Source: Plazaster borealis
Lineage: Eukaryota; Echinodermata; Asteroidea; Forcipulatida; Labidiasteridae
Assembly (NCBI GenBank): GCA_021014325.1
Contig: CM037462.1
Coordinates: 6,356,318 to 6,420,317, forward strand
Reading direction: 5' to 3'
Length of the DNA: 64,000 nt
Shown piece after piece: positions 6,119-63,487 of the stretch (position 1 is the first letter of the stretch; every line of letters starts with the position of its first letter). Made by a program: the position numbers and the translations under genes. The notes below the pieces were generated by a model. It ran no database searches and was not told the origin of the DNA. It saw nothing but the letters and a program-made list of their open reading frames with translations.

Positions 6119-6722
6119 CTTGAGAAAATAACGATTTTCAGGCTGTTAAAGGTATTTCCTTTGTTGGGTTTTTTATTATTCTCGTTACAAAAGGGTTGAA
6201 AAGAAAACTATGTTTTGCTCGTAACGGGCCGACAAAACTACCTCGTTGTAACCGTGTTCTCGCTACTACCGTGCTCGTATAATCCATATTTAAATGCATT
6301 GAAACATGCACAGGGCTCGTAATAACGGGAGTCGACTGTACTTAAAATGTGTGTATTTCAGAGAAAGAGAGTATAGCGACATGATCTGACAGTCATTTGA
6401 CAACCGAGATTAGACTGGTACCTTTAAGGTTAATAGCAGGCATTTCGATGTTCTCACTTTCATCATGGTGAACCTAGAACAGATTATTTTAAACATTCTG
6501 GGATTCCTACTGGGATCCCGTTTGGGTATAGTTAAAGTTTTTCATTAGTTGGATGGTTATCACCCATTCAAATTGTTTGTTATTAATGCCAATGTTCTAT
6601 CATTTCTTTCTTTCAGTTTGAATTTGTTGCAAAATTTCCTCTGCTAAGTTACACTGAAATATAAAGAAACAAAATAATAAAGTGATCAAGAAATGAGAGT
6701 GATTGATGGTCAGGGATCTAAC

Positions 6723-37106: not shown

Positions 37107-37254
37107 ATGATGCAGTTGGTGAGGTGGGCCGTTTTCGCTGGAGTTATCGGCATCGTCACTGCACACGTTCGGCTGTCATTTCCTCCAGCGAGAACCTACG
37201 CCTTTGATTTCCTTGACAATCTCAGAACGCAAGGTCCTTGTGGTATGCCGTCAT
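37107..37254 (+). CDS. Exon 1: signal peptide and N-terminal histidine of the LPMO-like domain
   Basis: Starts MMQLVRWAVFAG, a hydrophobic leader. Predicted cleavage after IVTA leaves His20 as the mature N-terminus, followed by HVRLSFPPART and a PCGMPS cysteine motif. An N-terminal His after signal removal is the hallmark of the LPMO histidine brace. The first of two tandem ATGs at 37107 was chosen; the donor is T|GTAAGT and the phase is 1. The next intron is 9.3 kb. Confidence 0.88.
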
Positions 37255-40200
37255 GTAAGTATAGTCAATTTGTACACGTTACATTTGCTAGTTGATTTTA
37301 TTGAAGATTTAACATGTGGTCAAATTAATTGTCATGGTATATGAATTACAGCAACAGCTTTGCGAAATTTACTTCCATGTCTGTGTTTCACGCCTATTCT
37401 GTTTCCGAACATTTCTCAGACTAGTCATTACCTTATGGTCAAACTTTCCAAACTTTTTAAGAACAGAAGTGATATTGCGTACACATGTTTTTACTATGAT
37501 TGGAAATGAGTTGATTGTATTTGTAATAAATCATTAATAAAACGGATCGATTAAATACCATTACTGTATAAACTTGAGTTTTAAAATGGTATATTTAAAA
37601 TTGATATGCATAAAGATTTAAATAATTACGACCTTAGAGTAAAACAAAAAAAGGTATGACTGTTTTTGTACAAAGTTTTGTAAAAGAAGAATGAGTTTGC
37701 TAATTCTAATAAATTAATAAGCAATGTTTGTTAATTGATTTGAATTATGCAGTATTGGCAAAGTCACTGCAATTGTGTTATTCATCAACTATTCATATAC
37801 CAATGCTTGCAGAAAGATTTCTTGGATGCCCAGTAAGGTTGAAAAAATATATGTTGACAGATTTGCACATAACTTGAACAACGTATAAAGATTGTCATAG
37901 TGGAAAACTTTCCAGATGTATTTTTGCTTGAAATGTTTTATTTTTTTATTTAAAAATGAGTAAAACAATTAGTTTTATCTTGTGAGACCTAAACTCACCT
38001 TTTTCTTGTGACTCCGATGAACATGAGCTTAAACTTTTACAGGTTTGATATTGAATATATTGGGTCACATAAAGTCTTTATTAGTTTTTCTCAAGTCATT
38101 TAAAGTGTTGCAGTTCTTAGAAAATTTGGCATACAGTATGTTTCAATAAAAAAGGACATAATTACCATTGTAATGCAAAGGATGTAACGATAAGCTTTTC
38201 AAAAGTAAAATATTCATTTTTGGATTTTGGTTTCTCTATAATCAATTTTAGCTTGCGATATCAGATTTGATCTTTTAGGAAAGAAATATACTTTGTTCTA
38301 AAGATAAGTATTGACAAAATTATGGTAACTTAATTTTCGTAGACTGCTGTTAAATCCTATTGGCAGTAGTTTTCATCAAAAAAAATCCTCCGATACAATT
38401 GTGTGAAGGAACAGAAGTTATGGGTAAATCAATGACACGGCACATTATGTGGTCTGAGAATGTACTTATTGAAATGATGGGAATCACCTTGAGTTGCCTG
38501 TGATCACTTCATTGTCATAGTAAGCTCCTTTAGTAGAACCCGAGTAGCATTTATCTAGACATTATGGCAAGTCTTTATGTTGTAATGACTGAGTATAGCC
38601 CTTTTTCTTTTGAGTACAACATAAACAGCAAAACAACAAATTTCAAACTGAACTGTTGCCCATCAAACCATTGAGCAAGGAATAGAACCAAGCAGCTGAT
38701 GAGACTATTAACACAGGCCTATTTGATATAGATGAATGCAGGGAATAAGTCACTCACAGGCCTGGAATTTCATTTTGCAAAAGCCACTTGCATTGGAAAT
38801 CTTGAAACTAATCTATGGGAACTTTTTAATGGGGCACCTAGGCCAAGATTGGGGCAATGGAGGCCATGTGTGGCCTCCGAGTAATTCCAGGCCTGAAATC
38901 GTGCCTCCCTAATGGGTTATGGGATATAAGGTCTGCGTTATGTATGAAGCTATTATGAATCAAACTGGGCTGACTATGTACCCTCCTGGTACCTGTGTAG
39001 CAAACGACCCTGCAGAAAACACCTTTCAGCAGATCACTATGCTGAAAACAGCAACGGCACACTGAGTTCTGTTCAATATCAGGAACAAGACATCCTGAAC
39101 AGGATTTTGAATACTATCGGCTACGAATAGTTTTAGATTTAGCATTTATAATTGAAACGTGTTTACCACTTACTAAATGAGACAAAACAAATTCAGCCAA
39201 AGCTGCATCGGTATTTTTCTCTATATGGCACAGCCTAAGTGTCGAGGGCTCGATTTCACACAGCGCTAAGATTCATAAGTTGAGTTTCCAATATCACCAT
39301 AGTGATTTTTATTGTGAAGTCACAATTTGCTTAGCAATTATGATTGATTCACACCTAAGATTAACCTTAGCTCTTTGTAAAATCGACCTCAGCTGATAGC
39401 ATTGAAGGATGGGCGTGTCACTGTTTGTTAAACAGCTTTTGTTGCATTGTTAGAGACATGGACAAATTGGATCATCTGACCCAATCACTGTGTTGACCTT
39501 GGGCTACAAGAGGTAGTGTTTTCAAGGACAGGCTATCACTCTAGTAAGTAATCATGCCAACTTTATAATAGTCGTTCAAGTTTTTTCATGTCATCGGGTG
39601 AGACTGTGATATGACTGAAGAAAAAACCCTTTAACATAATCTCAATGTTGTTGCTGTTATTGTAAAAACTCAGAATAAAGGTATGATGGATATGGATTAA
39701 ATAACTTACTTTAAATACACATTTTATGTCATATTTATTTTCTCAGCAAATGGTTTCCTTATCCTACATGTAAATATAAAGCAAATCCTGTAGCAGGTAC
39801 AATGGGTCAACAAAAGGATCCTGGGTAGGAGGTGGGCAATAAGGGCAGCCGTGGCAGCTGTGAACTGCTGCAAAAACCACCCAAAACCCATCCAAAACAA
39901 CAACAAACAACAAAAACAATGATTTGGGATATACTATAACAAAAACATTGTACAGAGTTTGTGTATAGGCCATAAAACTGAAAAAATCATAATAAAAAAT
40001 TTTGTAAACTATTCACTTAATGAAAATTTAAACTTTGGTACTTTGAGAACATTACATTCCCATTAATTGCCTAATAAAACTATTTCTTATTATGAAACTG
40101 CACTAGATATAGATTCAATGAAGTGTTTCTGAACAATGTCACCATAATATGTCCCTTACATTCTGCGTGTAACAGGTGTAAAATCCATGATTTTGTTTCC

Positions 40201-46200: not shown

Positions 46201-49200
46201 GGGTTCATTTAGGGTACCCTGTTCAAAACTGTGTTTCTTGCCTTGAAATAAATGAAGTGAATTTACAATTGATTATATCATTGTGTAGGCCTATACACTT
46301 CAGCTAATGTCGCAAAACATACTCCCATGTCAGATGTCAAAGAATAGATGCCTTGCAGTTGGCCATTGCTTGTAAATACTGCATTATTAATGATTGAGCA
46401 CAATACTACATTATTAATGATTGAGCACAATAGCATTATTCAGCACCATATCCATAAAACAGCTTATAATATTTAAAGCTGGCTTTTGAGTACTTTGATT
46501 ATCCAGTCAGATATTCATATTAATTTAGTATCAAATAATGTAATTGTAAGGTTTGTTTATCTTTTTGTCTAGCTCCTGGAGGTCCAGTGACTACTTTATC
46601 ACCAGGGGACACCATCAATGTGACATGGCATCTTGCATATGCACATAGGGTAAGCTCTTGTGTATTGTGTCATATAGAGGGCCAGAGAATGGCTCAGCCC
46701 ACTTCAAATAATGCTCTTCTATAGTTGGAGCTGGAAGGATGAAAGGTTATGCTTACACACAGGGCCAGATTTCATTTTCCGTGGACACTAGGAACCAGTG
46801 TTCCGTAGGCCCTACATTGTATATATACCAGTGCTCTGTAAGCCATATAGGCTCCAATCCTAACTTCATAAAAGTTTCTATATGGATTGTACATGTACTT
46901 AGATACTGAATAATAAAACCTAAGAGAAGAATTTATCATAGTGGTTGACCCACACTAGAATAGCAAGCACACATTCTACTAATTGCACTCACTATAAAAG
47001 TGTTCTCAAATCGATACAAGTACATGTATACTACAACAATCTGTGTCAATAAAGTACATCAGCTAGAATCACTACACTACACATCACCACTTATTGATTT
47101 ATTTCCTAATTTCCCTGGAGTGTGGTGACTCCTCTACCATCATGTACATACTTGTAATAAAACCTGCATTACTATTCAGATTAGTGGAAAATGGGCCCCA
47201 CTTTTTCTATGCCTGACTTAACGGCAGTACAATAATATTTTGTTTAGCTTAAAAACATTCGATCTCAATAGAAAGTTCATACCAAAGAAATTTGTCCCTC
47301 TAAGAACACAGTCAAAGTCAAGAAAAAAATGTTTAAAGATCCAAAAATTCATAATTGCTTATTTTGATTGTTGCTGAAACTCATGACAATAATTGTTTAA
47401 TTTTTACTAGAACGGGAAAACTAAATTGATGAAATTTCCACAGGTTGGTTTGATGCTGTGTCCATTAAAAGTAATTCTGAGTTCACCATCAAAAATAGTT
47501 ACCTATGATTCTGTTGGACTGATGAAAAATTAAAACCAAACTGGAGAATTTGTTTTAATTAGACTAATTAGCTTAAAAGCAGGGTATACTTTTGGTAATA
47601 ATTGTCAAAGACCGGTATCCTCACTTGGTGTTTCCCAACATATGCATAAAACAACTAACCTGTTAAAGTTTGGGCTAAATTGGTCATTGAAGTTGCAAGA
47701 AATTAATAAAAGAAATAAACACCATTGTTGCATAAAATTGTGTGCTTTCCGATGCCTGTGAAAAATTACCTCTTTCTCTAAAACTACATTACTTCAAAGG
47801 GTGTCATTTTTAACAATGGTTTATAATATCAACAGCTCTTTGGTGCTCTTTACCAAGTAAGTTTTTATGGTCATTAATTTGGAGTAATTACCAAAGGTAT
47901 ACTCTCCCTTTAAGAACTAATATGCTAATTACACTCACTCAAAAGTAAACACATGAAACTGATGGGAAATGAGAGCAAAGCACATATAGAAAAATATCAT
48001 CCACCTTAAAAGTGCTTTTTAAGCTTGTCAGCAGTTCACATCCAACCTTGTCGGTTTCAAACTACAACTATGAATAATTGATGTACATTAAGTTATGAAG
48101 CCTTCATTGTACAGCTGGTGACCTCCATCAGTGTCAATCAGTCAAAGGTGTAATAGGCCTACTCTTAATTTATTATTCCCCCCCCCTTTTTTTCAATTGA
48201 CACATACAATAATTAAACACATACAACAAAAATGTGAAAGTTGCATCAAATTAAATGGTCTCGATAAATTTTGTTAAAAGCCGGCAAGTGTCTTTTCCAG
48301 ATCATGTCAATAGTCGATGGAACTAGTTCTCAAGGTAAATTAAAGTATAGTATAGTTAAACAAAACATTTTCATTTAAGGTAGAAACAACAATTTAAACA
48401 AATTGTAACTAATCATTTAAGCCAACTAACAAAAGTAACGAGTTTCGACTTTTAAAAGGCTAGACAAATTCTTAGGCAAAAATAAACCAATGAAATTTCG
48501 GATTTCCCCCTTTTTTTGTTTTTCTTTTTTTTGTGTTTTTTTTTTAAATAGTAAATAGTTTTTAAAAAGGAGGCGGCGGCCAAAAAGGAGGCGAGCGAGG
48601 ACGAGAAACTCTTTTTTTTTGTTACTTGGTGTTTGATTTAGTGTTCCACATGAATTACCATCTCGGGTCAAAATTGTCTTTTAAGTTTCTCAAAAACCTG
48701 AAGTTGCCAACTGAACTCTTTAAGATGACCAAGAAAGATTGAGGTTATGTCCATGAAAACCTACTTCAATTATCGTACCACAGAACACTTTCAGATTTAT
48801 AACAAATAATAAAGTTAAGAGATATAATTAAATTCTTGCTGTGTGTATTTAACACTTACTTGTCAGTTAATACAGTAACTTTGGAGGTCAATTTTGTCAA
48901 ACATTATTTATTATTTGTATATGAATTATTTTAAAAGAAACACTTCATTAATCAGGTTATGTCCATGAAAACATTCTTCAATTACCACAGAACATCCAGA
49001 TAATATAACAAATAATAAAGTTAAGAGATATAATTAAACTCATTAATTTTCATTTGCTTAAATTTTTTTTCCCCAATCATGATGACTCTGCAGATATTCT
49101 GCCACAAGCTGAATTGATAAGGTCACAGGTTTTTTTTAATCAATTTGTTGCATTCCAATGAGTTGTAAAGATGCATTGTACTCTCTTTCATGGGGGTTCA

Positions 49201-52200
49201 TAATAGACTATTGAGGGGTAATGTAGTGTTAAAGAGCACAACTTATACAGTTGTTGTATTGATTTCATGCTTGTTTAGGTTATACACCAGCCAAGATTTG
49301 AGGCTATGCTCATTGCTCAGATCATCTGGTCAATTTCATTATTTCTTGCATTTTATGCCTGTTTGAATTCTTGTTAGAAAATAAATCTTTTTGATGCAAA
49401 ATGTAAATTTAGTTTCATGGAATTTGTTTTATTGAACTGATTTAGAGACTTTTCTGAGCCTGACCACTCACCTCTAACCTGTTGACATTTGACCAGCCTC
49501 ATGTCTTAAAGAGTCTACTGGTCTGCAGATGCTCTAATGCCCACATCTTTTGCTGCCCATTATTTAAGCCCATTTCTTACTGTATAATGTAGTTGGTATT
49601 TTCTTGTTGGTATAATAAGTTCATTTTGTTCTCTGAATCTAAGAGAAGATTTTTAGTATTTTCTTTTTGATGGAATATTATAAGAATTGAATGAGTACCA
49701 TCCGTGCCCTCAGCTTGATTGCAAATGACCTTTTGTTTAGAATAGGAGGATATTTGAATTAGTAAAGAGTTTTTCTTAGGATGTATGGCAAATTTTAAAC
49801 ATGGCCTGCTGTATAAACTCAGTCTGCTACAAGTCAAACAGACAACCCATCCACATCACTCATAGAACCCTCTGGGATAACGTGTAATGATGACTACTTG
49901 ATGTATTTTGTTGTTTTTAGGGTGGATACAAGTTGTTCATTATCCCTCGTAATGGCACTGAGGTCTTAGCTAATTTAACAACACCCGAAGGTTGGATAGG
50001 AGGTAATGATACCACGTAAGTATTAATCAATCTACAAGGTATTCAAGCAATCAGTGCAGTCATCTCCAAGTCTGTAAAACAGGAGTTTAACATCACCAAC
50101 ACATAATTATGTCAATTTAATTTTCATGCATACAGTTTCAAATTAAGAAACACAATGTTCAATGTTCTGATGAAAATTACAGGTACGAAAATATTTCCAG
50201 AGTTTTGATCAAAAGTTTAACATTAAAATGTTTCATGTTTTCTTGTTTGACCTTAATTGATTTTCTGACCTGATTTTATAGGACCATTATGCATGAAGTA
50301 CAGATACCTATTGATATGATGGAGGGTGATTATAGTTTAGTCTTAAATCGTCATGCTGCTGAATGGATCACGGGTAACCCTGACCTGCAATATATATTCC
50401 ATAGCTGTGCTGATATCACAATTACCGGTAAGCTCATATTAGTCAAACAGTCAGAACTTAATAATCTTTAATATAAAACTTGGGATACATGTTCCTGATA
50501 CAAACAATTATTTAGAAATAATAACATGCTTGGTATTATAGAGTAAAGTAAAAAATCTGTAAAACAAAACAAAAACAAACAAACAAACCAACCAACCAAC
50601 AAACAAACAATAACTTACCACCAGACAAAAAATGAAAAAGTAGAAACATTTGTAAAGAAACGTGCCGGCGCTCTACCAACTGAGCTATCTAGCCCGATGG
50701 TCTCCCTATTTTAATAAAATAGGGAGTCCCTCAACATATCGTCACCGACGCCACGAAGTAGCACACAGTGTACAAAACCACTTTTTTTTCTCTTCAGATT
50801 TCAGTTTTTTACATATTTAAACAATGTTAACCGAGGCCTATACAACTTCATGAAGTGTCAATGCTTGATGAGCTTTACTTTTTAATTACGGTAGTTGGCT
50901 TTGCAACTTTGCACCGAACCTGACATTTTTTGACACCACGAAGTAGCACTGAGATTCAATTTACCATTGAAACACTTGGTGCACACCAACCTCAAAAGTG
51001 AAAAAACGTTTTTACGAACTAGATTGTGCAGGTCACAAACAGGCATAGTAATACATTGCTGTGCTACTTCGTGAAAATGGTAAATGTCCATTTTCGCTAA
51101 TTTTCACATCACGAAGTAACACGCAGCTTTCTTACTTTATTGCTTATTAATTTAGGACGAAAGCATTAAAAAGCACCGTATATAGTTCAATGCATCAAGT
51201 CTCCGCTGTAAGAAAACTAGTTGAAAATACCCTTAAATTTTGTAGGAAAGCTTGATTTTAAAAAGCGTTCAACTTTAAATGTTGTTTTCTCAGATTGTTA
51301 CTTTTTACTGGTATCTACCTCTGGGCTACTTCGTGGCGTCGGTGATGATATGGCTAGACAGCTCAGTTGGTAGAGCGCTGGCATGTTTATCCAGAGGTCA
51401 TTGGTTCAAATCCTGTTCTAGTCAATTTGTCTTTGTTCAACCCGTAATTATTGTTATTTGATTTCATTCAAAGTGACATACATGTATTCCAATCGATAAT
51501 GAACAACAATGTACTCATTTATAAACAATAAATGATTGAGTTAACAGGCTCAAGGGGGAATAACGTTATAAATTGAACGAAATAAAAATAATGTAAACGA
51601 GTCACATTGTTTAAGTCCAGTGTACACAAAATGCTTCCTTAAAAACCTGTTACACTACAGTAGCGCGATTAGATTTTCAAAATATGATCAATGTAGAGAA
51701 AAATGACTCACTTGATTCTTCCCTCATTGGGTAACATTTTGCAGTGGTACATGACTTGGAACCTGATTAATCACCTTGACAAGTTGACATGTGTCAAACA
51801 GTTTTGTTTTTAATGCTGACTTATCATGTTATTTGCAGCTGATGCTGTGTGCAACACTGCCGAGGGTTGCTCTGGTAATGGAGTTTGCGGTGTGGACAAT
51901 AAGTGTGAATGTAATGCCCTCGCCAGAGGAGAATATTGTCAATATCTCGGTAAGCATTATCAGCTTTCAAAACTCAAAGTGTAACGGTGAGAATAAGTGA
52001 ACACAAAAGCAAAGCAACAGGAATTCAATGGTGCAGATCACAAAAATCAAAGTGTCCAGTCGGCAGTTGATACACCGGGCAGGTTGGAGTAAACATGGAT
52101 AGGCTTGAAAAACATAAAATAATGCAATTTGCTTACTCTATGTTTATGTATGTTACTGTATATTATTTTCCTATGAATTGCCAATGGTGTTAAAATTTTG

Positions 52201-55200
52201 ATATTTTCAATTTAAAGTTGAGTTCTTTTTGAATGACATAGATGACTGCGAGAATGAAGAAGGCTGTAATATGCATGGTGTATGTACAGTAGTATCAGAT
52301 GTTACCTACTCTTTCCCTCGTGCTGTCTGCTTCTGTAATAATGGATTCTATGGAAGATATTGTAACAAAGGTGGGTCAAATATTATGTCCAAATTCAAAT
52401 ATTTACATAAATTTATTAAATATCAGTTTAGATAGCAGCTTGCAAACATAAAAAGAAACTATGTCACAGTTTGCATCCACTTCCAGAAACAGACTCCTTT
52501 TTCCCCGTGTTCTTTTACTTGGAATGCACAACACACACGGTACCTACGGCCAGAAGAAGAAAAAAAATTATGGTGAAGTATCTTGCTCAAAGACACAAGT
52601 GTGACTAGTAGGACTTAAACCCACTCTCTGACATCACCAGAACTTGAGTACTGATCGCTCAGCTTTGACACAATTAAGACTTTCCTTTGCCAAATAAGTG
52701 TATGTTTTACAAATAAATAACATGGCTGTAAACTAGCAACGTTGTTCACAGTTCAAGCTTGTTATGTATGCTGGTTTAACTTAATTAGTTGGTGGTTTTT
52801 ACTTTTATATTGCTGTACATGAAGCTTTTGAAGATATTACTCAAATAAAGAAATGAAATATGAAGGGCAAGATATTAATATTAACAAAAACTCTTCTTTG
52901 TTCCATTGTAGAAAATCCAACAGATTTCAAAGTTGACATGACTGCTGCTGAAATGGAGACTTACTTCCATAGAGAGCTATCAGAGTCAATGGAGGTGTAC
53001 TACAAAGTCCTTACAGTAAGTACTGACCAATTACTCTGCATGGAGATGGAATGACATTAAAATACACTCACGTAGTTATATAATCGATGTTGAAGTCACA
53101 CTGTCTGTGCATTGTAAATCCAGCTTGGAGAATTGTGATTCGAAGCATTGGAAAAAAAGCTTTAAGAACTTTAGTTGCATATGTTATATTGGACCCCTAA
53201 ATCTTGTCTTCATCAACTGTCAACTCAAAGCAAATGCAACGTGGAAATTACATACCTCCCTACAGCCCTACCCTATGCGGATGTTGAACTCAGTTAAAAA
53301 ACAATGGTTTATTACAAAAACAATTTGTTTCTTATAAACACAAATGGTTTCTTACAAACACAAATGGTTTCTTACAAACATGTTTCACAGTTTATAAGAA
53401 CTGAATTGCACATGTTATCATCAAACATTTTATATTGATACCAAACATCAACAATTAGATAACTAACAGTATAAATGGGTTAATTTCTGTACTGATACAT
53501 AATTATTGGAATTTAAAACTTCGCTCACAAGAAATTCCTTTTAAATTACATTACTATGATTTTATATTTGGAAGTTTCATTTTAAAATGATGTCAGATGA
53601 TTTGTATCATTAAACCATGTTGGAAGGATATAGGGCTTATGATCAATACTAAAAAAGATCTGAATGGAGAAAGGCTTGGTAAAAGTGGAACCTGTATTGT
53701 AGTAGACTGCCCACAGCCTGTTTATTATTCAACATATTCAACATAAAAAATCAAGCATTTTCAAAAAATATACACAAGATTTAAAAGACCAAAAGTATAC
53801 TCATTATTCTTTGTAACTTAAAGACCAGCTTGAATGAAAACGGCAACAATTGATTTTTGCTGAAATCCATTTAAAATGTTTTCAATCAATAAGGACATTG
53901 AGTTCACAGCAGAGTAAACAGATTATAAATGTAAAAAAATAGCCTTCTCTGGTGCTTTTCAGAAAGATTCGCGAAAAGCCCCGTTACGTCATCACCCATG
54001 TTTTCTCATTGTGGGAGCTCCATTAAAAGGGTTTTATCAAAAGATAAAGAGCACAACAACATTAGCATTTTTTCATATTTCCATGTTGCAAACATACCAG
54101 TAGCATTAACTTTGACAACTTGCTCTATATTGTCTATGATACCATACTTTGGATTTTTACTCTGACAGAGTTCAAATGAAGTTGAAGTAGTTGTCAAATC
54201 CACTGGGAAGAGCTGGATAGCTTTCGGCTGGCGGCCTCAAGGTACAGTAAATATCCATCATCATCATTATACTCTTTTAGCTTGCCACAATTATTAATAT
54301 CACAATGCTTTTATAGCTTTCAACAAACCCTTCCCTAAGGGAAAGGGCCACCATTTAGTTCCACACCATCACTAATTAAGTCATTTCTCCAAAGTGTAAT
54401 GACTGGGGGAGTCAAATTCCTTGATATCCTAGAATGACCATTCCATATATCTACACAGGGGGGGGGGGAGGTCAGGTCCCAGAGGTTTTTTGTTGTAGTT
54501 TTTTTTTCTTTTCTTTTTTCAAAATATATATTGAATGGTGTGGTAGTAATTGGCCCTTTCTCTCTCGAGATACAGTCTGGGGTGTTGCCACACACTTAAA
54601 TAATTAGAGAAATATGTCAATTACTGGGTAGCTAAAAGATTCAAATAGAAAATGCACATATTTATTTTTAAAATATATAATTTGGTTATGTGGTTGTAAG
54701 TATTGGCCCTTTTGCTCGTCTGGGTAAAGTCGGGGCATTTCCACGCCCCCAAGGATTCGCTAATGAATCGATTACTGGGTAGCTAAAGGACTCAAATAAT
54801 GTAAAGAAGTCACTTAGATGTAAAAATTATTTGGAAATGCATAGAAAATATTAGTTAACACCTTGTAATTGGCATGGAATCAAACATTGGCCATTTCAAG
54901 CATTTGAGTGTAGTCAATGGAGTTAACAGACTTAAAGGCACTGGACACGTTTGGTAATTACTCAAAATATATATTAGCATAAAAACTTACTTGGTAACGA
55001 GCAATGGAGAGCTGTTGATAGTATAAAACATTGTGAGAAATGACTCCCTCTGAAGTAACGTAGTTTTTGAGAAAGAGGTAATTTCTCACTAAAATATTTG
55101 AATCTGAAAAAAGACTTCAAACCTGAAGCCTTGTTCAGGCATCTGAAAGCTCACAAATTTGTGCAACTGATGTTTTTTCTTTCATTACTTTCTTGCAACT

Positions 55201-58200
55201 TCGATGACCAATTGAGCCCAAATTTTCACAGGCTTGTTATTTTATGCTTATGTTGGGATTCACCAAATGAGAACACTGGTCTTTGACAATTACCAAACGT
55301 GTCCAGTGCATTTAAGGGTTAAAATCATAAGTGGTGGATAGCTGTGTTAGTCAGGTAATTGCAGAAAATAAAATAAATTGTAGCACTTTAATGACTAACT
55401 AGTAAGAAGTATCTGCATAAGCTTTCGTAACGATAACTACTTCATCAGATGCAAATAGTTGTTGCAGATATTTCTGATAAGTTAGTCATTAAAAATACTA
55501 CAATTTATTTTTCTTTCTACATTATCATGAAATTCTTTAGCTTTCTAATTTTTGGAGACCAACTCACTAAAGATTACATAATAATTATGACTATTTTTAT
55601 ATCATTCAATAGTGTCATTAATTTTTGCCCCAAAAGGTAAACAGATTTGGTTTAACTATTAATCAAAATGTTAATCACAAACTTAAAAAAAAAAAACCAC
55701 ATAAATTAAAGTAGAAGTAGTAGTGGTCACATTTGTAAGGCGGAAACTGACGTATTCCTTTAGCTAGAGATGCTGTCAGTGCTTTATTTCATCTGTTATA
55801 CAAGACAGTAGGCATACACAACAATATTGTTCCATGTTTAACCAACCCTATGAAATTGTAAAAAAGACGACCCACAAAACTCTGGCACATCTTATCTTTA
55901 TTCGATTATCAAGAGGAACACTATTTTTTATCAAGTAAATTGAAGATATATATAAAGAGCATGTTTCTTGTTATCTTAATCATGTTTTTCTAAAACCTTC
56001 CTAAATACAAAACAATACTGACAGCAAAAACATGACCTTAAAGGCATTTTGTGATCTTGGGAAAATTCATGAAATGGTTAGCTTTTTAAGCAATTTAATT
56101 TTAATGTAAGCATTGATGAGATATATTATGTGGCAAGTCTTAAACCACATTATGCAGGGCTCGAAATTAACACTGGACCGCAGGCCCGAGGCCAGTGATT
56201 TTAGCGTCGGTCCAGTAAACTTTATACCGAACAAGTCCGGCGGTCTTGTGTTTTTTACATACTAAAAGTATTATTATTACCTGAAATGAATAATCTTTCA
56301 TTAAATAAATGTATTTAAATCTCAGTTTGAATTTTTTTGGTTATATTTGTTGTCGTCAAATTATTTCCGAGCGCGGAACATCCAACGTGGCCGCAACCCG
56401 GCCGACCGTTCTTCGTGCTTCAAAGTTCCCTATCTAGTTTGCTCATGCCCAGGACCACTGCACTGGGCTCAAACCATGCTTTACGTGCCCAGGGGGACGA
56501 GCGAACGGCACCCTCCTTGCATGCGTGATGTTTGTACTGTGCCTGGCGGAACACCACAGTACAACGCTTCGTTCGTTTACCACTGACCATGTGCATGGCA
56601 TGATGTCACTTTAAAGTCTGATACCTTGCACCAACGAATTATACAGTGTTGAAATCGTATTAATGACGTATAGGTTGTGTTCTTTCAACACCACACATCC
56701 CTGTGTTGCATAGATTAAAAGTAACGTCTTGTTTCCACACGTCTTTTCATGCTTCATATGTTAAAATTTTAAACGTTGTTGTCCTGTCAAAACGATCGTC
56801 AAAACTTATTTCATTTTTTCTATGGCAGCAAACGTTGTGTAAAAAGAAGGTATGTGGAAATTTCTCGAAGGGGTTTCAAAGCCAAAACTGCCTGTTAAGC
56901 AATCTGCAAGTGAAAAACTTGCACAGGCGCAGAAGTATGAAAAAACAAGTTAACTTTTGGCAAAAGAAGTTTTGGTGTGTTTTTGTTGCGTTTTGGATTT
57001 TTTCTTCTCATATGACTTCGGTCTTGTAAAAAATGTTCCGGTCCAGTAAAAATTCTGAACAACAAGCCCTGCGGTCTTGTGGATTTTTTCCCCAAATTCG
57101 AGCCCTGTTATGCCTTAAGTCAGCTTTACAGAAGGCTAATTTGTGAATGAACATCTATTGGTGAAATATATTTTTAATTTATTTCTAAATTATCAAAGTT
57201 TATTAATGATTTCAGTGCTATAAGACACGCTAACAATACTAGTGATGTTTATCCTTTGAAGGTATAAATGGTACATGCCGTAACTTCCCAGTAGCTTACT
57301 GGTCAGGTGGATCTCCAGAAGGTGAACCAGAGACAGAGCCACCAGCCACACCAGCAACCATGGTACATCAATATACAACTTTAATTAGTCTAGGCTTATT
57401 GCCTAAAAGTTCAGAGAAAAGATTTATCTGGTGTCCTATTAAAAATACTAACATTAATTAGTTCAGTTGAAATAAATTGTTTTATTATTACAACTTATGA
57501 TAAGTGCAATGCATTTGAGTAAAAATGAAAGCTTAGTTGACAATTTCTGAAGGCTGTAGTCGCTGAATTCTCATGAAGAATTGCAAATATGAAAACCATG
57601 CAATAGAAATTTATTTGTGAGAGGAATTGCTTCAAAGAATGAATTACCACTGATATACCATCACAAATATTTTCCTTACTATATTACATGGTTGTAAGAG
57701 CCTGTTTATTTCGCATACTTTTTAAGCATACGATAATGTTAGCATCTCACTTGATATGTTGTTATTGTTCATACTTTGCATTTGTCTGTAGGGAAATCGT
57801 CGGCGTCGATCTGTTCGATCTCTGCGTGTCATTCGTGACTCTCATGACATGGATGATGTGTGTATCCCTGGAGGTCCAGGTGGGAGTGCAGAACCAGAAC
57901 CAGGTGCAGAACCAGAACCCGGTGCTACACCAGAACCCGGTGCTACACCAGAACCAGGTGCTACACCAGAACCAGAGGGTACGTTTCAAGAGTCAGGAGT
58001 GTGCACTATAGATGGAATAGGAAACCTGTGGTACTTACTCTACACCCTGTTCCTTGACTGTATTGTATTATAAGCTGCTAACTGTTCCAGTGTATAACAG
58101 CATATTTATGTATTGTTTTTAGTTTACCTGGACACATTATATATCCCCTTCACAGTTGAGTTGAGCCTCAACCAATGAGACAATGAGAGACTGCTAAAAC

Positions 58201-61200
58201 TGGTGATACATGCACACTTGAAAGTATAAATTCCATTCAATAACACAATTATACATACTAAAAATAAAATGTGGAGGCACAGATCTTATGAGCCAAGACT
58301 TGTAAACCAACATGGTGAGGTTGAATATTGAAAGAGACAATTTAAGTAATTTTATGAAAACAGTGCAATATAAGTATTAAATTTGTCAACTTTTACTGAA
58401 TGAAGACACAAAAAGGGCCAGAGTGAAGTTCATGCAATGGAACCATTATTGTGAGACCTTTGTAATAGTTCAAGTGTATTGCTGGTAACTCATTACTTTT
58501 GACATCCATTGAATGCTTAGGCCTACATAGCAAATATTTATGAATTTTACCAACTTTGCCAACTGGGGGGCCCAGTAGGTTCACCAAATAGTCTCTGTGA
58601 ATGATTTCCTTGCTCACATTAGCTTTATCGAAGCATTAAACATAACCCTTTGTGGTATTTCTCTTTGTCTTGAGGAGATGATATTAACTGTTTATCTCGT
58701 CATTATTTTCTAATCCATAGGTGAGCCAGAAGGACCAGCTTTAGGTAAGTGTTACATAAAAGCATACACAAAATGAGCTAATAAAAACAACAAATAGTGA
58801 TGAGAAAAGCAGAGGAAAATGCAGATAAGGAATATAGATAAACATTTCAATTACTACATGACCCAAGAACACAAGTAAATACAGTGAAATTACAAATGAA
58901 TCCACAAGAAGCTTACACATGTAGGTGCAGTCATCTAATAACAATTTAAAAAGACAATAATTATGTCTGTCAAGGGTCAAAAAAGTAAAATAAATGAGCA
59001 TTTGCCAGCAGGTATAGCCCTACAAAAGTACATAACTCATATTTAACATTGCAGTCAATGGTAGACTGTTGTATCAATCATGCCTATAGACTATCAGGCA
59101 CCTAATCATACAGAGAACAGTTTAGTTGCCCCTTTCAGCCCCAATGGCGACTTTAGTGGACTTACTATACCCTGCTTGAGCCCCAATGGCGACTTTAGTC
59201 GCCCAAGTTAACACTCAATAAAGCACTCAAGCCTGAGCACAAAGGCCATTTGTTAAAAAGCTGTAGTTTTGTCCATGTTCACCTTCCATACCCAAGCTTA
59301 CCATCATTGGAAAGAGAAAGATTGGATATTTCCAATGGTGGTTAAATATAATAGGGTTGCTATTATGCAATCACTTCAAATTGAAGTGGAAAGATCCGAA
59401 ATGCCAAGTACCTACGGAGCTTCATGGCTGTGTTTGGGTTTACAGAACACACTGGGAAACAAAGACCAAGAACTTGGACATTTGGCTGATTTCAATGATT
59501 TGTTAATTATATGAAAGGATATTTAATAAGTAAGACAATTTTGTATTACTTATTATGCTCTAAAATGAAATCTTCAAGGTAATAATAGATATAGTGAAAT
59601 CTTATTCTGTGTACTTGGAAAAAGAATATTAAATAGAAATTCGTTATACTCATAATGTTGAATTCATAAAGTCTACCAGCAGAAAAAAAAAGATCTTCAA
59701 TTTGCCCTGGGAATATGTTAAGTGTAGTTGAAAAATACTGAAGTCCACAAATGTGTTTTCATCATATTTGACCAGAAAACAATATTTAGGAAAACAATCT
59801 TGTCTTTGTTTTTCAAATTTATTGTATTCTTTAAACCCTTTTCTGTGCGGGAACAACTTGTCAGTTAAAAAATTTACTTCACTCTTTGACAGGAAAATAA
59901 TGAAAATTAAATGAGAATTATGTGTTTTTCTAGTTGTCTGTCATACTTTCTCAAATTATTTTGTTTTTGTTTTTTGAAACTAAATATTTGGAATAAGCAT
60001 CCTATGTATGACTATTTGCCAATAGGTCCCTTGCATCCTATGGATTGTGTAGATGTAGTGATTGGTATGGTTGATGGTGAAAGATCTCGTGTTGGTGATT
60101 ACTACACTAGAGATCGTTCTACTCCTCGCTATGACAGCTTCTATGGAGGTACCGAGGATCTCACTGCTGCAGGAGGAAAACAATACGCCAATTATACCAT
60201 TATAAAGTTCCGCAAAAATCTTACTTGTGAGTTGCTGCAGAATTCTGCTGTAATTTTGTAGATGTAAAAACCATTTCATGTAACGAGCGGGAAAAAGGGA
60301 TTGTTTAACAAGAAAGGTTCTTTTACTTTTGACATTTGTAAAAAGTTGCATCTGTAATTTTTGCAATCACTGGGATTATGATTTTACCTGACATACATTT
60401 ATCCATGGAGGTGTAACACAGATCAAGGGTTGTCTATAATAATGTCTCTTCATTTTGGGTGACCCAACAAGCTAACGAATAATTCAGTTGTTGTTGTTGA
60501 ATTGTTTGTTTGTTTTTTGCAACCCACCCGACTTTTACAGTTAAATAAAAAACAAATCAAGTAATTAACTTTGATTCTGTGCAAGACACACTTATCAATA
60601 AAATTTATGAAATTAAGCAGAAAGTTGGTTATTTCAACCTATTCACAATGTGCAACTGATTTATTTTTGGGTAAGAACTGTTTGTAAGAATGGTGTACTT
60701 CTGCTGTAGTGCAAATTATGACCACTAGTTCAGTACAGTTACACATTGGTTTTATTCTATATGAGGACACTAAGCTATGAACTTGCCTTTCACACATCAA
60801 AGACATCAATAATAATTTTGATTTTAAGTGAAAATAACACCCAAAGTATGGCATTTTTGTGCTATGCGTTCAACCGATGCATTACCGAGATGATAAATAA
60901 AGATTGGTAAATTATAAGAGGTAACTAATAAATAGTAAACTTGCAGTTACAACCATGTGTAAAAACTCTTTTGTAGGAGTGTTGGCTCTGAAAAGAGCCG
61001 GTGGGGTCTCGACGTCCCTACTGGTAGACCATCATTCTCCTGAAGACGAGCAGAGTATACTGTATACCGGCTCTTTTCAGAGCCAACACTCCCACAAAAG
61101 AGTTTTTCCCACATGGTTTTACCCGCAAGTTTACTATTTATTTTAGTTACCTCTTATTTGTCCACACCATGCAAAGCTTCAAACAACACTTATTGGTAAA

Positions 61201-63487
61201 TTATGTTTAAGACTACACAAAACATGTTGGTGCAGTATTAATAATGATTATTTTGTTGATTTGCATACAGCCACAGAGATGTCAGATCATGGTATTTCCA
61301 GTGGACCAATGCATATAATCTTTGCACGAGGCCAGGAGGCAGGACATTATGTGCATAATCCACCTAGTGGTATTGAATTATGCACTGGTGACCAACACTT
61401 CTATAAGCGTTTTGAGTTGAAGTATCATGGTACACATCAAGAACAACGTGGCCAAGTCCCTAGTTTTGACTTTTTTGGTAAGTGTCTATTAGACCTACAA
61501 AAACTAAATTAAAAATGAAAAAGCACAATTTTGCTCCATTTAAACTTTGAGACCACTTTACTTACATACTGATTAATTTAATTCCAGTATCAGAATAATT
61601 TGAAGGTTAATACAATGTAGTGGATCATCGATGATTGATTTAGGAAGATTGTCAACACTATTTGCATTGTCTCCTGGTTGTAAGTTGATTGAGTGATTTG
61701 ATTCTGATTGAAATTGTGATTCTAAAATGAATTAATAGTGAGTTGATGTTTGTTTGTTTACAGTGGATCCTAATGTAAAGCCACCTACTGCAGGTCCATG
61801 CTCTGGGTCTTATCAACAACCTATGAATTGTGAAGGAGATGCATGTGACTACAGGATGAAATGGACTTATGATGCTGTCAGTGATAAGATTCAATTTGAA
61901 ATTTCTGCAAAGACTGAAATTAATAAATGGACTGGAGTGGGCTTTTCAAAGCAAGGTCAAATGGTACGTCACATGACTTACAATGATTGCTGTCCATTAT
62001 TTCTATTCATTTGTATTCAAATACAGAGTTGAAGCATGGATACTACATGTTATAGATGTCACAATATTCAGTTAATATCAACTGAGTCAATTTTAATCTT
62101 TTCAAGATAACAAATAACATGAACACCAATTGATGTCCTAATTTTAAAAAAATTATGTGCGGTTAATTATTATGATATTTATATTTTTATTCAAACAGTG
62201 TGTAGATTAATTTTGTTTAAAAAATGACAAATGGAACAGTGTTACATCAGTTAGCTGTTATGATGTGTGTACTTTCACATAGCCTCTGTATAGTGGACTG
62301 ATTTTTGTATTTAACTTTCTGACTACAGATTGGATCTGATGCAATTATTGCATATACTAAGGCAAATGGTGAAGTAGTTGTTGAAGATCGTTTCCTAGGT
62401 GGTAAGAGTGGACCTGGTGTTGTTGTTGATGCCACCAATAATCTAGAAGAGGTTTCTGCTTCATATGATAATGGCTTAATGACCATTGCATTCAGTCGAG
62501 CCAGAGACACTCAAGATATGCAGGTTAGTTTATCCTCTCTTAACACAGTCAAGTCATTTATCTATTGTCGCGCGTATCGGAACGAGAAAACACGTCAAAC
62601 GGAGAACATTTTTTTCTCTGAAATCAAATCTTACAACAAAAATACTCATTACATGTTTATAATAAATACACAAATAATGTGTTAATTATTACTGAAGCAA
62701 AATTTAAACTCTGGGACAAGGATGCTTATTTGATCTTAACTTTTCAGAAACCACTTACGTGGATTCGCGATGGTCACACGGGCGTACAATTAATGCTTGA
62801 CGCAGTTTATAGAGGACGCCGACGCCTCAACAACCATAGACTGCTATAAAAAGGTTTCGCGTTGCAATTACAGCATCTGGCGATTATCATCGCGCATCCA
62901 AAACAAGCATTAATATAAGTTTTGTGATCGGAGTTGATCACAAAATTCTTATTTTTTTTGCAGCAACCGGAAGCTGAGGTCAAGTTTAATTCTCGGGTTT
63001 TCTTTGTTTTATTGTTGAATTGATTTTACTTTCCTATTTTGTATCACTTAGTATTACATTCCCAACAACATATATATTTTTCATGGTCATAAACCACGCT
63101 AAACTAAACTAATTGACAAAAAAAAAACTTCCCCCATGTAAATCTCCATATGGTTGGGACCACAATGGTCCCGGAAGTTCAAATATGCGCGAGACTTGCA
63201 CAGTCTATTACCTTGTGAATTTGAATTTTACAAAGTTGCTACTTTTTGCTCGTTGATGATAAATGTTTGTTCATGTACATATCTCATAATGGGATTAACT
63301 ATTAATCCTCATTTTTTCTTTCTAATTGGCCCACAGGATTTAGCATTTACTGATAATGATTGCTTACATATGTTGATACCTACTAATGGAGGATCATTTA
63401 ATGAGGCAGCTAATACTCTGGGCTACCATGGGCAAACTCCAACAGTGACTGGTAAAATCTGCATCAAGGCTTGCAGTGTCCAACCAG
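37107..63487 (+). CDS. Secreted LPMO-like / EGF / tandem DOMON protein (16 exons, 3' incomplete)
   Basis: Exons are 37107-37254, 46573-46649, 49921-50015, 50282-50427, 51839-51949, 52242-52370, 52912-53015, 54169-54241, 57262-57362, 57792-57978, 58721-58744, 60026-60226, 61271-61477, 61764-61963, 62329-62523 and 63337-63487. Every junction is AG/GT, and phases join without a stop to give 716 codons plus one base; the gene runs off the right edge. Domains in order: signal peptide 1-19 ending IVTA; LPMO-like domain 20-155; two EGF-like modules about 160-190 and 195-234; DOMON 1 about 250-530, split by an insert at 295-399; DOMON 2 about 560-705. Sequons at N65, N93, N104 and N297, plus NYT and NLT late in DOMON 1, fit secretion. 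By family knowledge DOMON domains bind heme or sugar, and LPMO-like domains bind one copper ion through an N-terminal histidine. The redox role is inference. Downstream exons could add further DOMON copies or a cytochrome b561 membrane region. Confidence 0.9.
38757..38895. mobile_element. CAGGCCTGGAATT MITE
   Basis: Termini CAGGCCTGGAATT and AATTCCAGGCCTG are perfect inverted repeats, 139 bp apart end to end. The CAGG...CCTG ends are hAT-like; no clear 8-bp duplication was seen. Confidence 0.5.
43923..44311. mobile_element. Inverted-repeat element in intron 1
   Basis: ATTAGCTTCCCCAGGTCGAC is inverted as CCTGGGTCCACCCAGGAAGCTAAT (imperfect) at the right. About 389 bp. Both ends hold a GACCCC/GGGGTC pair. 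Confidence 0.5.
46573..46649 (+). CDS. Exon 2: LPMO-like domain strand with candidate second copper His
   Basis: Encodes SPGGPVTTLSPGDTINVTW then HLAYAHR. Codon Ser50 is completed across the junction. His74 (or His69) sits just before GGYKLFII, the position where LPMOs carry the second brace histidine. Donor AGG|GTAAGC, phase 0. Confidence 0.88.
47583..47915 (-). mobile_element. GGTAATTACT dispersed element, copy in intron 2
   Basis: Contains TTTTGGTAATAATTGTCAAA, CCTGTTAAAGTTTGGGC, AACACCATTGTTGCAT, AAACTACATTACTTCAAAGG and a TAATTACCAAAGGTATACTC end, in the same order as 10024-10392. Confidence 0.6.
49921..50015 (+). CDS. Exon 3: LPMO-like domain core
   Basis: Begins GGYKLFIIPRNGTEVLANLT and contains two N-glycosylation sequons (NLT, NDT). 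Acceptor ttgtttttag, donor AC|GTAAGT, phase 2. Confidence 0.88.
50282..50427 (+). CDS. Exon 4: C-terminal strand of the LPMO-like domain
   Basis: Contains GDYSLVLNRHAAEW and ends IFHSCADITI. Phe146 followed by SCADI resembles the terminal F-Y-x-C-A-D-I/V strand of AA10, AA15 and X325 domains, where an aromatic residue lies axial to the copper. Cys149 could pair with Cys45 of exon 1. Donor G|GTAAGC, phase 1. Confidence 0.88.
50663..51424. mobile_element. Composite inverted element with tRNA-like ends
   Basis: The right end (51352-51424) folds as a complete 73-nt tRNA-like cloverleaf with B box GGTTCAAATCC. The left end (50663-50695, minus strand) is a truncated copy (GGCTAGATAGCTCAGTTGGT). 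Inside, GACGCCACGAAGTAGC near 50748 is inverted as GCTACTTCGTGGCGTC near 51326, and ACGAAGTAG-like words recur near 50938, 51063 and 51111. It lies in intron 4 of the LPMO-like/DOMON gene. Confidence 0.55.
51352..51424 (+). tRNA. tRNA-like sequence (GTT anticodon position), probably repeat-derived
   Basis: The acceptor stem GGCTAGA/TCTAGTC pairs at 7 of 7 (one G-T). The D stem GCTC/GAGC is perfect. The anticodon loop ATGTTTA places GTT, and the T loop is TTCAAAT. There is one mismatch each in the anticodon and T stems. The sequence does not resemble animal tRNA-Asn and a truncated inverted copy flanks the element, so a SINE head is more likely than a working tRNA gene. Confidence 0.3.
51839..52370 (+). 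CDS. Exons 5 and 6: two EGF-like modules
   Basis: Exon 5 (51839-51949) has six cysteines in the order C-x5-C-x5-C-x5-C-x-C-x8-C, including GCSGNGVCG. Exon 6 (52242-52370) has the same plan with DDCENEEGCNMHGVC and CFCNNGFYGRYC. Both exons are phase 1-1, the usual arrangement of shuffled EGF modules. They probably act as an extracellular spacer between the LPMO-like and DOMON parts. Confidence 0.88.
52571..52672 (-). mobile_element. Degenerate SINE copy
   Basis: On the minus strand, ACTCAAGTTCTGGTGATGTC, GTGGGTTTAAGTCC and TTTGAGCAAGATACTTCACC follow the order of the SINE at 15328-15749. It lies in intron 6. Confidence 0.5.
52912..54241 (+). CDS. Exons 7 and 8: N-terminal part of DOMON 1
   Basis: Exon 7 (52912-53015) encodes NPTDFKVDMTAAEM and SMEVYYKVLT. 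Exon 8 (54169-54241) encodes SSNEVEVVVKSTGKSWIAFG then WRPQ. The W-I-A-F-G strand is a DOMON hallmark (generic x-W-x-A-x-G-F/W). Exon 7 ends in phase 0 and exon 8 in phase 1. Confidence 0.85.
53016..54168 (+). other. Intron 7, no further feature
   Basis: AT-rich. It contains a short threefold tandem of AATGGTTTCTTACAAACACA-type units at about 53325-53380. Confidence 0.5.
54934..55318 (+). mobile_element. GGTAATTACT dispersed element, best copy
   Basis: GGCACTGGACACGTTTGGTA at the left and TTACCAAACGTGTCCAGTGC at the right form 20-bp inverted ends, so this is a TIR-bounded MITE of about 385 bp. It shares its interior with copies at 3180, 10024, 27110 and 47583. Confidence 0.65.
56155..57107. 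mobile_element. hAT-like nonautonomous element
   Basis: Termini CAGGGCTCGAAATT and AAATTCGAGCCCTG are inverted repeats. The words CGGTCTTGTG and CGGTCCAGTAAA recur near both ends. TTATG flanks both sides. About 953 bp in intron 8; internal frames show no transposase motif. Confidence 0.55.
57262..58744 (+). CDS. Exons 9-11: insert cassette inside DOMON 1
   Basis: Exon 9 (57262-57362), exon 10 (57792-57978) and microexon 11 (58721-58744, 24 nt) total 312 nt and are phase 1 at both outer boundaries, so skipping them keeps frame (exon 8 PQG joins PLHPM of exon 12). They encode residues 296-398: a GSPEGEPETEPPATPATM stretch, GNRRRRSVRSLRV, a CIPGGPGGS segment and PEPGAT/PEPGAE repeats. The RRRR-S site fits a furin-type protease. 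Cys300 and Cys352 could close a loop. Confidence 0.82.
58745..60025 (+). other. Intron 11, no further feature recognised
   Basis: Holds an 81-codon open frame at 59269-59514 with no recognised motif. A short direct repeat CCCCAATGGCGACTTTAGT lies near 59140 and 59182. Confidence 0.45.
60026..61477 (+). CDS. Exons 12 and 13: heme-ligand part of DOMON 1
   Basis: Exon 12 (60026-60226) encodes PLHPMDCVDVVIGMVDG, a DYYTRD strand and IIKFRKNLT. Exon 13 (61271-61477) encodes MSDHGISSGPMHIIFARG and GHYVHNPPSG. By alignment with DOMON 2, Met404 and His494 are the candidate axial heme ligands, 90 residues apart. Confidence 0.87.
60915..61156. mobile_element. Palindromic MITE in intron 12
   Basis: TAAGAGGTAACTAATAAATA at the left is inverted as the right end (TTTAGTTACCTCTTA), with long inner arms AAAAACTCTTTTGTAGGAGT and GTTGGCTCTGAAAAGAGCCG. 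It ends about 115 bp before exon 13. Confidence 0.65.
61764..63487 (+). CDS. Exons 14-16: DOMON 2
   Basis: Exons 61764-61963, 62329-62523 and 63337-63487. The core reads WTGVGFSKQGQM|IGSDAIIAY with a phase-0 intron directly after Met601, then VVVEDRFLGG, LMTIAFSRA and LGYHGQTP with His697. Met601 and His697 are 96 residues apart, like the Met/His pair of cytochrome-type DOMONs. The last exon ends at donor G|GTATGT and the gene continues beyond the window. Confidence 0.88.
62541..63207. mobile_element. DNA-transposon MITE, copy 2
   Basis: The right end ATATGCGCGAGACTTGCACA plus GTCTA matches the 8309-8858 copy. The left end is degraded (ACAGTCAAGTC, then GTCGCGCGTATCGG). Shared interior words include ACAAGGATGCTTATT and TATGGTTGGGACCACAATG. 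It fills most of intron 15. Confidence 0.6.

What the first reader, a model, noticed from the sequence alone, without database searches (positions are those of the whole stretch)
37107..63487. One animal polypeptide with a predicted copper LPMO-like domain, EGF modules and two DOMON cytochrome-type domains
Seen: after signal cleavage the protein would start with His20 (HVRLSFPPAR), with a second His at 74 before GGYKLFII and an aromatic/cysteine terminal strand (IFHSCADITI), then EGF modules and two DOMONs with Met/His pairs. Known: in fungi AA8 DOMON cytochromes such as that of cellobiose dehydrogenase reduce separate LPMOs, and LPMO-like X325/BIM1 domains bind copper without oxidase activity. 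Inference: this protein could be a self-contained copper/heme redox unit, either an internally fuelled polysaccharide oxidase or a copper-handling surface reductase. I do not know of a described animal family with this order.
Basis: partly seen in the sequence, partly recalled or inferred. Interest (0 to 1): 0.88.

Follow-up and report, generated by a model that had tools for sequence, protein, structure and literature searches.

The report
Animal LPMO-like, EGF and DOMON protein
An animal gene encodes one protein, probably held on the cell surface, that joins a domain related to copper-dependent sugar-cutting enzymes to two domains of a heme-carrying type; this combination of domains has been mentioned once in print that I found, without any account of what it does.

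Summary
Fifteen window exons plus a last exon beyond the window join in one frame with AG/GT borders at all 15 introns. The 739-residue protein has a signal peptide, an LPMO-like domain from His20, two EGF-like modules, two DOMONs and a GPI-type tail. No cytochrome b561 hit lies near it.

The LPMO-like domain is real by sequence: a profile of eight bacterial relatives scores it 33.9 bits, best of 10,000 shuffles 10.0. That profile's first PDB hits are AA10, AA15 and AA13 LPMOs. His74, Cys45, Cys149 and Asp151 are invariant; Phe146 sits where LPMOs have the axial aromatic.

Against a glycan-cutting enzyme: the domain is compact (137 residues, CBP21 170), the N/Q/E-x-F/Y motif is not met, and it passes no curated cut-off. 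I favour a surface copper-binding, heme-linked redox protein, closer to fungal Bim1 than to a digestive LPMO. That function is inference: copper binding, heme binding and electron transfer are untested, and no structure was predicted. One sentence in print mentions the domain combination (PMC6950343).

The parts
37107..37254 (+). exon 1: signal peptide (1-19) and start of LPMO-like domain; His20 codon 37164-37166, Cys45 codon 37239-37241
46573..46649 (+). exon 2: LPMO-like domain; His74 codon 46644-46646
49921..50015 (+). exon 3: LPMO-like domain (GGYKLFII...); Asp105 codon 50008-50010
50282..50427 (+). exon 4: end of LPMO-like domain, IFHSCADITIT; Phe146 codon 50397-50399
51839..51949 (+). 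exon 5: EGF-like module 1, phase 1-1 exon
   Evidence: exon constraint
52242..52370 (+). exon 6: EGF-like module 2, phase 1-1 exon
   Evidence: exon constraint
52912..53015 (+). exon 7: start of DOMON1
   Evidence: exon constraint
54169..54241 (+). exon 8: DOMON1
57262..57362 (+). exon 9: DOMON1, start of inserted loop
57792..57978 (+). exon 10: inserted loop in DOMON1 with RRRRS (331-335) and Pro/Glu-rich repeats
60026..60226 (+). exon 11: DOMON1; Met396 codon 60040-60042
61271..61477 (+). exon 12: end of DOMON1; His510 codon 61426-61428
61764..61963 (+). exon 13: DOMON2; Met593 codon 61961-61963
62329..62523 (+). exon 14: DOMON2
63337..63487 (+). exon 15: end of DOMON2; His689 codon 63427-63429; splices in phase 1 to a last exon outside the window (64726-64820 in window numbering, GPI-type tail)

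Best explanation
The gene encodes a secreted, modular redox protein of an animal cell surface, held by a GPI anchor. Its N-terminal domain belongs to the LPMO superfamily and most likely binds one copper ion through the amino group and side chain of His20 and the side chain of His74, with Phe146 in the axial place. Two EGF-like modules act as spacers. Two DOMON domains of the heme-b type (M396/H510 and M593/H689) lie between them and the anchor. The most likely working: the hemes exchange electrons with extracellular reductants or a partner reductase and set the redox state of the copper, so that copper is held, reduced or passed on at the cell surface, in a Bim1-like rather than a digestive role. 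Supported by calls: the gene model, the homology of the LPMO-like and DOMON domains, the matching residues, no b561 hit nearby. Judged from sequence by eye: signal peptide, GPI anchor, EGF pattern. Inferred: copper and heme binding, electron transfer, copper handling.
For: Gene model: AG/GT at all 15 introns and one open frame of 739 codons. Homology of the domain: NF043005 E 6.4e-7; BLASTP with bacterial L098 E 9e-9 for that single comparison; 33.9 bits versus 10.0 for the best of 10,000 shuffles. The 9-sequence profile lists 14 PDB sequences at E<=10: 11 are LPMOs by their names or by the AA10 profile ('Endoglucanase, putative') I recall as AA9 LPMOs, 1 is not. The bacterial-only profile lists 11, the top 7 of them LPMOs. 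Residues: H55, C26, C130 and D132 of the mature domain are invariant in 9 of 9. Bim1 leaning: 4 of the 6 bacterial relatives scanned (L098, L105, L106, L107) pass both the BIM1-like and LPMO_10 cut-offs; the domain is compact; a Gly-rich stretch carries Asp105 (EGWIGGND). DOMONs: cut-off passed in both regions; DOMON2 also touches CDH-cyt at E 0.0036, below cut-off. The Met/His pair is reported conserved in CYBDOM DOMONs and not in sugar-binding ones or dopamine beta-hydroxylase (PMC10691727, passages). Bim1 binds copper, is said to lack a recognisable polysaccharide site and released no soluble cello-oligosaccharides (PMC7529816, passages, abstract text included). None of the 6 b561 matches lies on contig C8.
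Against: The animal domain passes no curated cut-off (LPMO_10 18.4 of 23, BIM1-like 14.5 of 27, NF043005 29.5 of 75). Its single-sequence PDB search found no LPMO; 4 of its 5 hits are Ig or FnIII proteins. AA10-only profiles match it weakly (0.9 bits; hhalign probability about 1%; the 9-sequence alignment against AA10 likewise about 1%). MAFFT put Phe146 and Cys149 opposite gaps and Cys45 opposite Lys36 of CBP21; the profile alignments put the end strand in register. The invariance of the first His is partly my choice, since I cut each bacterial protein by eye at the His after its signal-like stretch. Two of 6 bacterial relatives scanned fail one or both cut-offs (L097, L094); L095 and L096 were not scanned. 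No DOMON appeared in the Pfam scans of those six. Bim1 is described as not redox active, which sits badly with a heme-fed copper site. EGF models are below cut-off. No structure prediction, expression data or animal orthologues were available.
Confidence: 0.45

Rival explanations
1. A true polysaccharide monooxygenase: the copper domain cuts a surface or matrix glycan, and the two heme DOMONs feed it electrons in cis, as the separate AA8 cytochrome of cellobiose dehydrogenase does for fungal LPMOs (the fungal case is recalled).
For: Second brace His and an axial-type Phe; the animal AA15 enzyme 5msz is the second PDB hit (E 9.5e-5); DOMON2 weakly matches CDH-cyt (E 0.0036).
Against: Compact domain: 32 of CBP21 residues 20-80 face a gap in the animal sequence; N/Q/E-x-F/Y motif not met (Y144-I145-F146); no carbohydrate-binding module in the Pfam scans; four N-glycosylation sequons on the domain.
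Confidence: 0.22
2. A structural glycan-binding and matrix-organising protein like insect Knickkopf, where the copper and heme sites are silent or serve only stability.
For: DOMON plus GPI anchor as in Knickkopf, which binds and protects chitin (PMC4140639, passages); EGF-like modules suit matrix contacts.
Against: No DM13 domains found; the metal-site residues are kept, which a silent fold need not do.
Confidence: 0.2
3. Exons 1-4 are a separate small secreted LPMO-like gene that ends in intron 4, and the EGF-DOMON part is another gene.
For: In frame, a stop codon stands at 50469, 42 bases past the end of exon 4; introns 1 and 2 are about 9.3 and 3.3 kb.
Against: A consensus donor and a phase-matched acceptor join exon 4 to the phase 1-1 EGF-like exons; [quoted passage not shown]
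Confidence: 0.07
4. The N-terminal domain is an unrelated Ig or fibronectin-like sandwich whose likeness to LPMOs is chance.
For: The single-sequence PDB search gives Ig and FnIII proteins at E 0.012 to 0.44 in 4 of its 5 hits, and no LPMO.
Against: Profile and shuffle tests, PDB profile hits, invariant second His, PCG and CxD.
Confidence: 0.04

Closest known systems
SCE4755 family polysaccharide monooxygenase-like proteins of bacteria (NCBIfam NF043005)
   Same: Nearest relatives seen: His after a signal-like stretch, PCG, second His, CxD end strand; L098, a relative of the family below its cut-off, is 28% identical to the animal domain by BLASTP
   Different: No EGF or DOMON in the six scanned; L105 and L106 carry FnIII-like and L107 PKD-like modules, below cut-off; animal domain scores 29.5 bits, cut-off 75
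X325/Bim1 fungal copper proteins (Pfam PF20238)
   Same: His brace and GPI anchor reported for Bim1 (PMC10952591, passages); 4 of 6 bacterial relatives scanned pass the Pfam cut-off
   Different: Animal domain below cut-off; an Asp ligand is not established; no heme domains mentioned for Bim1 in the passages seen
AA10, AA13 and AA15 LPMOs
   Same: Lead the PDB profile hits; second His and end strand align
   Different: Animal domain compact, N/Q/E-x-F/Y not met, activity unknown
CYBDOM proteins (DOMON plus cytochrome b561; insect CG8399, plant HYP1)
   Same: DOMON with a Met/His pair
   Different: No b561 hit here; GPI-type tail instead
Knickkopf family
   Same: DOMON and GPI anchor
   Different: No DM13 domains found; LPMO-like and EGF-like modules present
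[quoted passage not shown]
   Same: Same combination of domains, placed at an early branch of the LPMO tree
   Different: Named in one sentence; order of domains, anchor and residues not described in the text seen

Membership tests
LPMO (AA families) | mature N-terminal His after signal cleavage | tested here: inconclusive
   VTA|H motif read by eye; no cleavage predictor was run; the relatives were cut by eye at the same His
LPMO (AA families) | second brace His | tested here: met
   His74 aligns with the AA10 His of the WKLTAxH strand and with the PDB LPMOs
LPMO (AA families) | axial Phe/Tyr | tested here: met
   Phe146 is three before Cys149, as Phe or Tyr in 4oy7, 5msz, 4opb and 4b5q; that this is the axial residue is recalled; MAFFT placed it at a gap
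LPMO (AA families) | N/Q/E-x-F/Y motif (PMC6950343) | tested here: not met
   Y144-I145-F146; Gln143 is one place off
LPMO (AA families) | long loop region before the Trp-His strand, as in chitin-active AA10 | tested here: not met
   32 of CBP21 residues 20-80 face a gap; that this region forms the substrate surface is recalled
LPMO (AA families) | curated LPMO_10 score | tested here: not met
   18.4 bits, cut-off 23
LPMO (AA families) | oxidative cleavage of a glycan | not testable with these tools
   needs purified protein
X325/Bim1 | curated BIM1-like score | tested here: not met
   14.5 bits, cut-off 27; 4 of 6 bacterial relatives scanned pass
X325/Bim1 | Asp copper ligand on a Gly-rich loop | tested here: inconclusive
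   Asp105 in GWIGGND is a candidate; no structure
X325/Bim1 | GPI anchor | tested here: inconclusive
   last exon ends GPTDGGNSGNMMSLCLTTLLTTLILTFLHIM; judged by eye, no predictor run
SCE4755 (NF043005) | curated score | tested here: not met
   29.5 bits, cut-off 75
EGF | curated Pfam score | tested here: not met
   EGF_2 18.8 of 22.1, EGF_Teneurin 17.5 of 24.3
EGF | six cysteines per module | tested here: met
   six at 160-189, six at 195-233
DOMON | curated Pfam score | tested here: met
   57 and 101.7 bits for the two regions, cut-off 32.7
heme-type DOMON | Met and His ligands | tested here: inconclusive
   M396/H510 and M593/H689 are there; the LxYHG His aligns between the two; the Met residues were paired by eye and not aligned by MAFFT; no comparison with a heme-bound structure
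CYBDOM | cytochrome b561 region | tested here: not met
   6 matches in the genome, none on contig C8
AA8 (CDH-cyt) | curated Pfam score | tested here: not met
   DOMON2 17.5 bits, cut-off 27
Knickkopf | two DM13 domains | tested here: not met
   none listed in the Pfam scan at E<=10

The most novel reading that the evidence does not exclude
A self-contained animal copper/heme oxidase: the surface-anchored protein reduces its own N-terminal copper through two DOMON hemes and oxidises a glycan of the animal's own surface or matrix, with an LPMO-type site and its electron donors in one animal polypeptide. I know of no described case.
Probability: 0.18. Interest if true: 0.88.

Novelty: new variant of a known kind. 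Interest (0 to 1): 0.62.

Why it matters
Histidine-brace copper proteins and heme DOMONs are known separately, and in fungi as partners (recalled). Both kinds of domain in one probably anchored animal protein would give a single construct in which heme-to-copper electron transfer can be tested. It also links an animal domain to a little-described bacterial family and to fungal copper-uptake proteins, so one structure would inform three groups.

Tried and rejected
A b561 region downstream was looked for and not found (6 matches, none on C8; the search is exon by exon). A chance Ig-like match was considered and rejected on profile evidence. A separate gene for exons 1-4 was judged unlikely. Direct comparison with AA10 alone was weak. 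Scans with the animal domain found no relative: 2 pattern matches in viral contigs, 22 in prokaryotic contigs, none confirmed. PHROGs gave only E 0.07. A search of this genome with the domain gave its own four exons and one piece of the inverted copy. NF043005 and LPMO_10 in this genome gave one chance-level match and none; they missed this gene too, so they do not show that other LPMOs are absent. Four bacterial genomes reached by handle gave one weak match, E 0.305. Bacterial gene neighbourhoods, read by eye for 2 of 5 regions fetched, told nothing clear. PDB searches with the DOMONs found no DOMON protein. Papers seen in passages and not used further: PMC3204972 (coral DOMON proteins), PMC5823890 (its 'Domon' hits are an author's name), PMC4633127, PMC7924993. 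A search for animal orthologues could not be made: the protein database is switched off. I judged both outside its rule and sent neither.

Full report
What is there. The window is G000:C8:6356318-6420317 of a genome of 560.6 Mb. Fifteen exons between 37107 and 63487 join in one frame (one search printed the last end one base short). Downstream DNA supplies a last exon at 64726-64820 in window numbering, found among candidates, with acceptor CTGCAG after a pyrimidine-rich stretch and ending GPTDGGNSGNMMSLCLTTLLTTLILTFLHIM and a stop. I read that tail by eye as a GPI signal. A re-derivation gives AG/GT at all 15 introns and 739 codons. Cysteines per part are even: 2 in the LPMO-like domain, 6 and 6 in the EGF-like modules, 4 in the DOMON1 part, 6 in the DOMON2 part. 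The two EGF-like exons are phase 1-1, the class used in exon shuffling (general knowledge). The EGF models of Pfam stay below their cut-offs.

LPMO-like domain. Alone, the 137-residue domain gives Pfam LPMO_10 E 0.0036 and BIM1-like E 0.051, both below cut-off, and NCBIfam NF043005, an SCE4755 family polysaccharide monooxygenase-like protein, E 6.4e-7 over residues 20-67, below its cut-off. I sought relatives of that family: 1 match in 398 genomes drawn from the phylum of G001; 5 in 397 of the order of G035, that first one included, 4 over the cut-off; and with L098 as query 4 in 369 genomes of its class, its own included. Eight bacterial sequences were used, each cut by eye at the His that follows a signal-like stretch. 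Six were scanned with Pfam: L098, L105, L106 and L107 pass both the BIM1-like and LPMO_10 cut-offs, L097 passes LPMO_10 only, L094 neither. L098 against the animal domain: BLASTP E 9e-9 for that one comparison, 39 of 138 positions identical. A five-sequence profile gives 28.0 bits, best of 5,000 shuffles 9.3. The eight-sequence profile gives 33.9 bits, best of 10,000 shuffles 10.0, over residues 22-136. The nine-sequence profile, animal sequence included, lists 14 PDB sequences at E<=10: 4oy7 (4e-5), AA15 5msz (9.5e-5), AA13 4opb (6.6e-4) and others. Eleven are LPMOs by name or by an AA10 profile, which finds 4oy7, 5fjq, 7okr and 7zjb; two 'Endoglucanase, putative' I recall as AA9 LPMOs; one is not an LPMO. 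Without the animal sequence the first three are the same and the top 7 of 11 are LPMOs.

Residues. His20, Pro44-Cys45-Gly46, Gly61, His74, Cys149 and Asp151 are invariant in 9 of 9; for His20 this is partly by my choice of start. Phe146 stands three before Cys149, where the PDB alignments have Phe or Tyr; that these are the axial residues is recalled. Results against: MAFFT with four AA10 sequences pairs His74 and Trp68 with the AA10 His and Trp, but puts Phe146 and Cys149 at gaps and Cys45 opposite Lys36 of CBP21; AA10-only comparisons were weak; the single-sequence PDB search found no LPMO. In that MAFFT alignment 32 of CBP21 residues 20-80 face a gap, and the whole domain has 137 residues to CBP21's 170; I recall this region as the substrate surface. 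The N/Q/E-x-F/Y motif named in PMC6950343 reads Y-I-F here.

DOMONs. Pfam gives 57 bits for DOMON1, matched after its long inserted loop, and 101.7 for DOMON2; DOMON2 also touches CDH-cyt at E 0.0036, below cut-off. Each has a Met four before an Asp and a late YHG His. With the loop left out, MAFFT aligns the YHG of both but offsets the Met residues; I paired those by eye. PMC10691727 (passages) reports the Met/His pair as conserved in the animal CYBDOM DOMONs it aligned and absent in sugar-binding DOMONs and in dopamine beta-hydroxylase. PMC10784544 (passages) proposes such a pair from a model of a plant protein. PDB sequence searches with these DOMONs found no DOMON protein. The genome-wide DOMON search lists 10 matches, 3 of them exons of this gene.

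Membrane link. The genome has six b561 matches, on contigs C13 and C20, none on C8. So the protein does not look like a DOMON-b561 fusion, unless exons were missed by an exon-wise search.

Function. Bim1 is said to bind copper through a His brace and, by a homology model, an Asp on a Gly-rich loop; to lack a recognisable polysaccharide site; to release no soluble cello-oligosaccharides; and to be not redox active (PMC7529816, passages, abstract text included). The animal domain shares the candidate brace and has a Gly-rich stretch with Asp105. I therefore favour copper holding or reduction at the cell surface with help from the hemes (0.45), over glycan oxidation (0.22) and matrix organisation like Knickkopf (0.20; PMC4140639, passages). 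Bim1's lack of redox activity speaks against simple transfer of its role to a heme-linked protein; that is the weakest point.

Literature. Ten searches of the paper library were made; I looked into ten papers by passages, and into one section of one of them. [quoted passage not shown] Most subscription papers are not held, so this does not show absence from print.

Noticed in passing
beyond the window, 69380-76002 in window numbering, minus strand (L002-L003): Inverted partial copy of the gene with exons 5, 6, 7 and part of exon 3, DNA blocks 87-96% identical; no copy of exon 4 was found. Exons 5-7 differ at 3 of 344 aligned sites, intron sequence at 95 of 1732.
   Followed up: partly
57792-57978: DOMON1 carries an inserted loop with RRRRS, like a furin site, and TPEPGA-type repeats; it might be cut (furin motif recalled).
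   Followed up: no
L105, L106, L107: Bacterial relatives with FnIII-like or PKD-like modules (below cut-off) and hydrophobic C-terminal tails like surface sorting signals (tail type recalled).
   Followed up: partly
G000:C13:9115575-9129879: Cytochrome b561 matches on opposite strands about 11 kb apart, as if two genes.
   Followed up: no
about 99074-104018 in window numbering (L005-L006): Retroelement-like open frames with a reverse-transcriptase look, read by eye.
   Followed up: no
6713-7900, minus strand: Open frame of 396 codons; a 352-residue piece matched no Pfam family at E<=1.
   Followed up: partly
80434-81037 in window numbering (L003): Tandem repeat read as VTQWLPSGYP units in three frames.
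   Followed up: no
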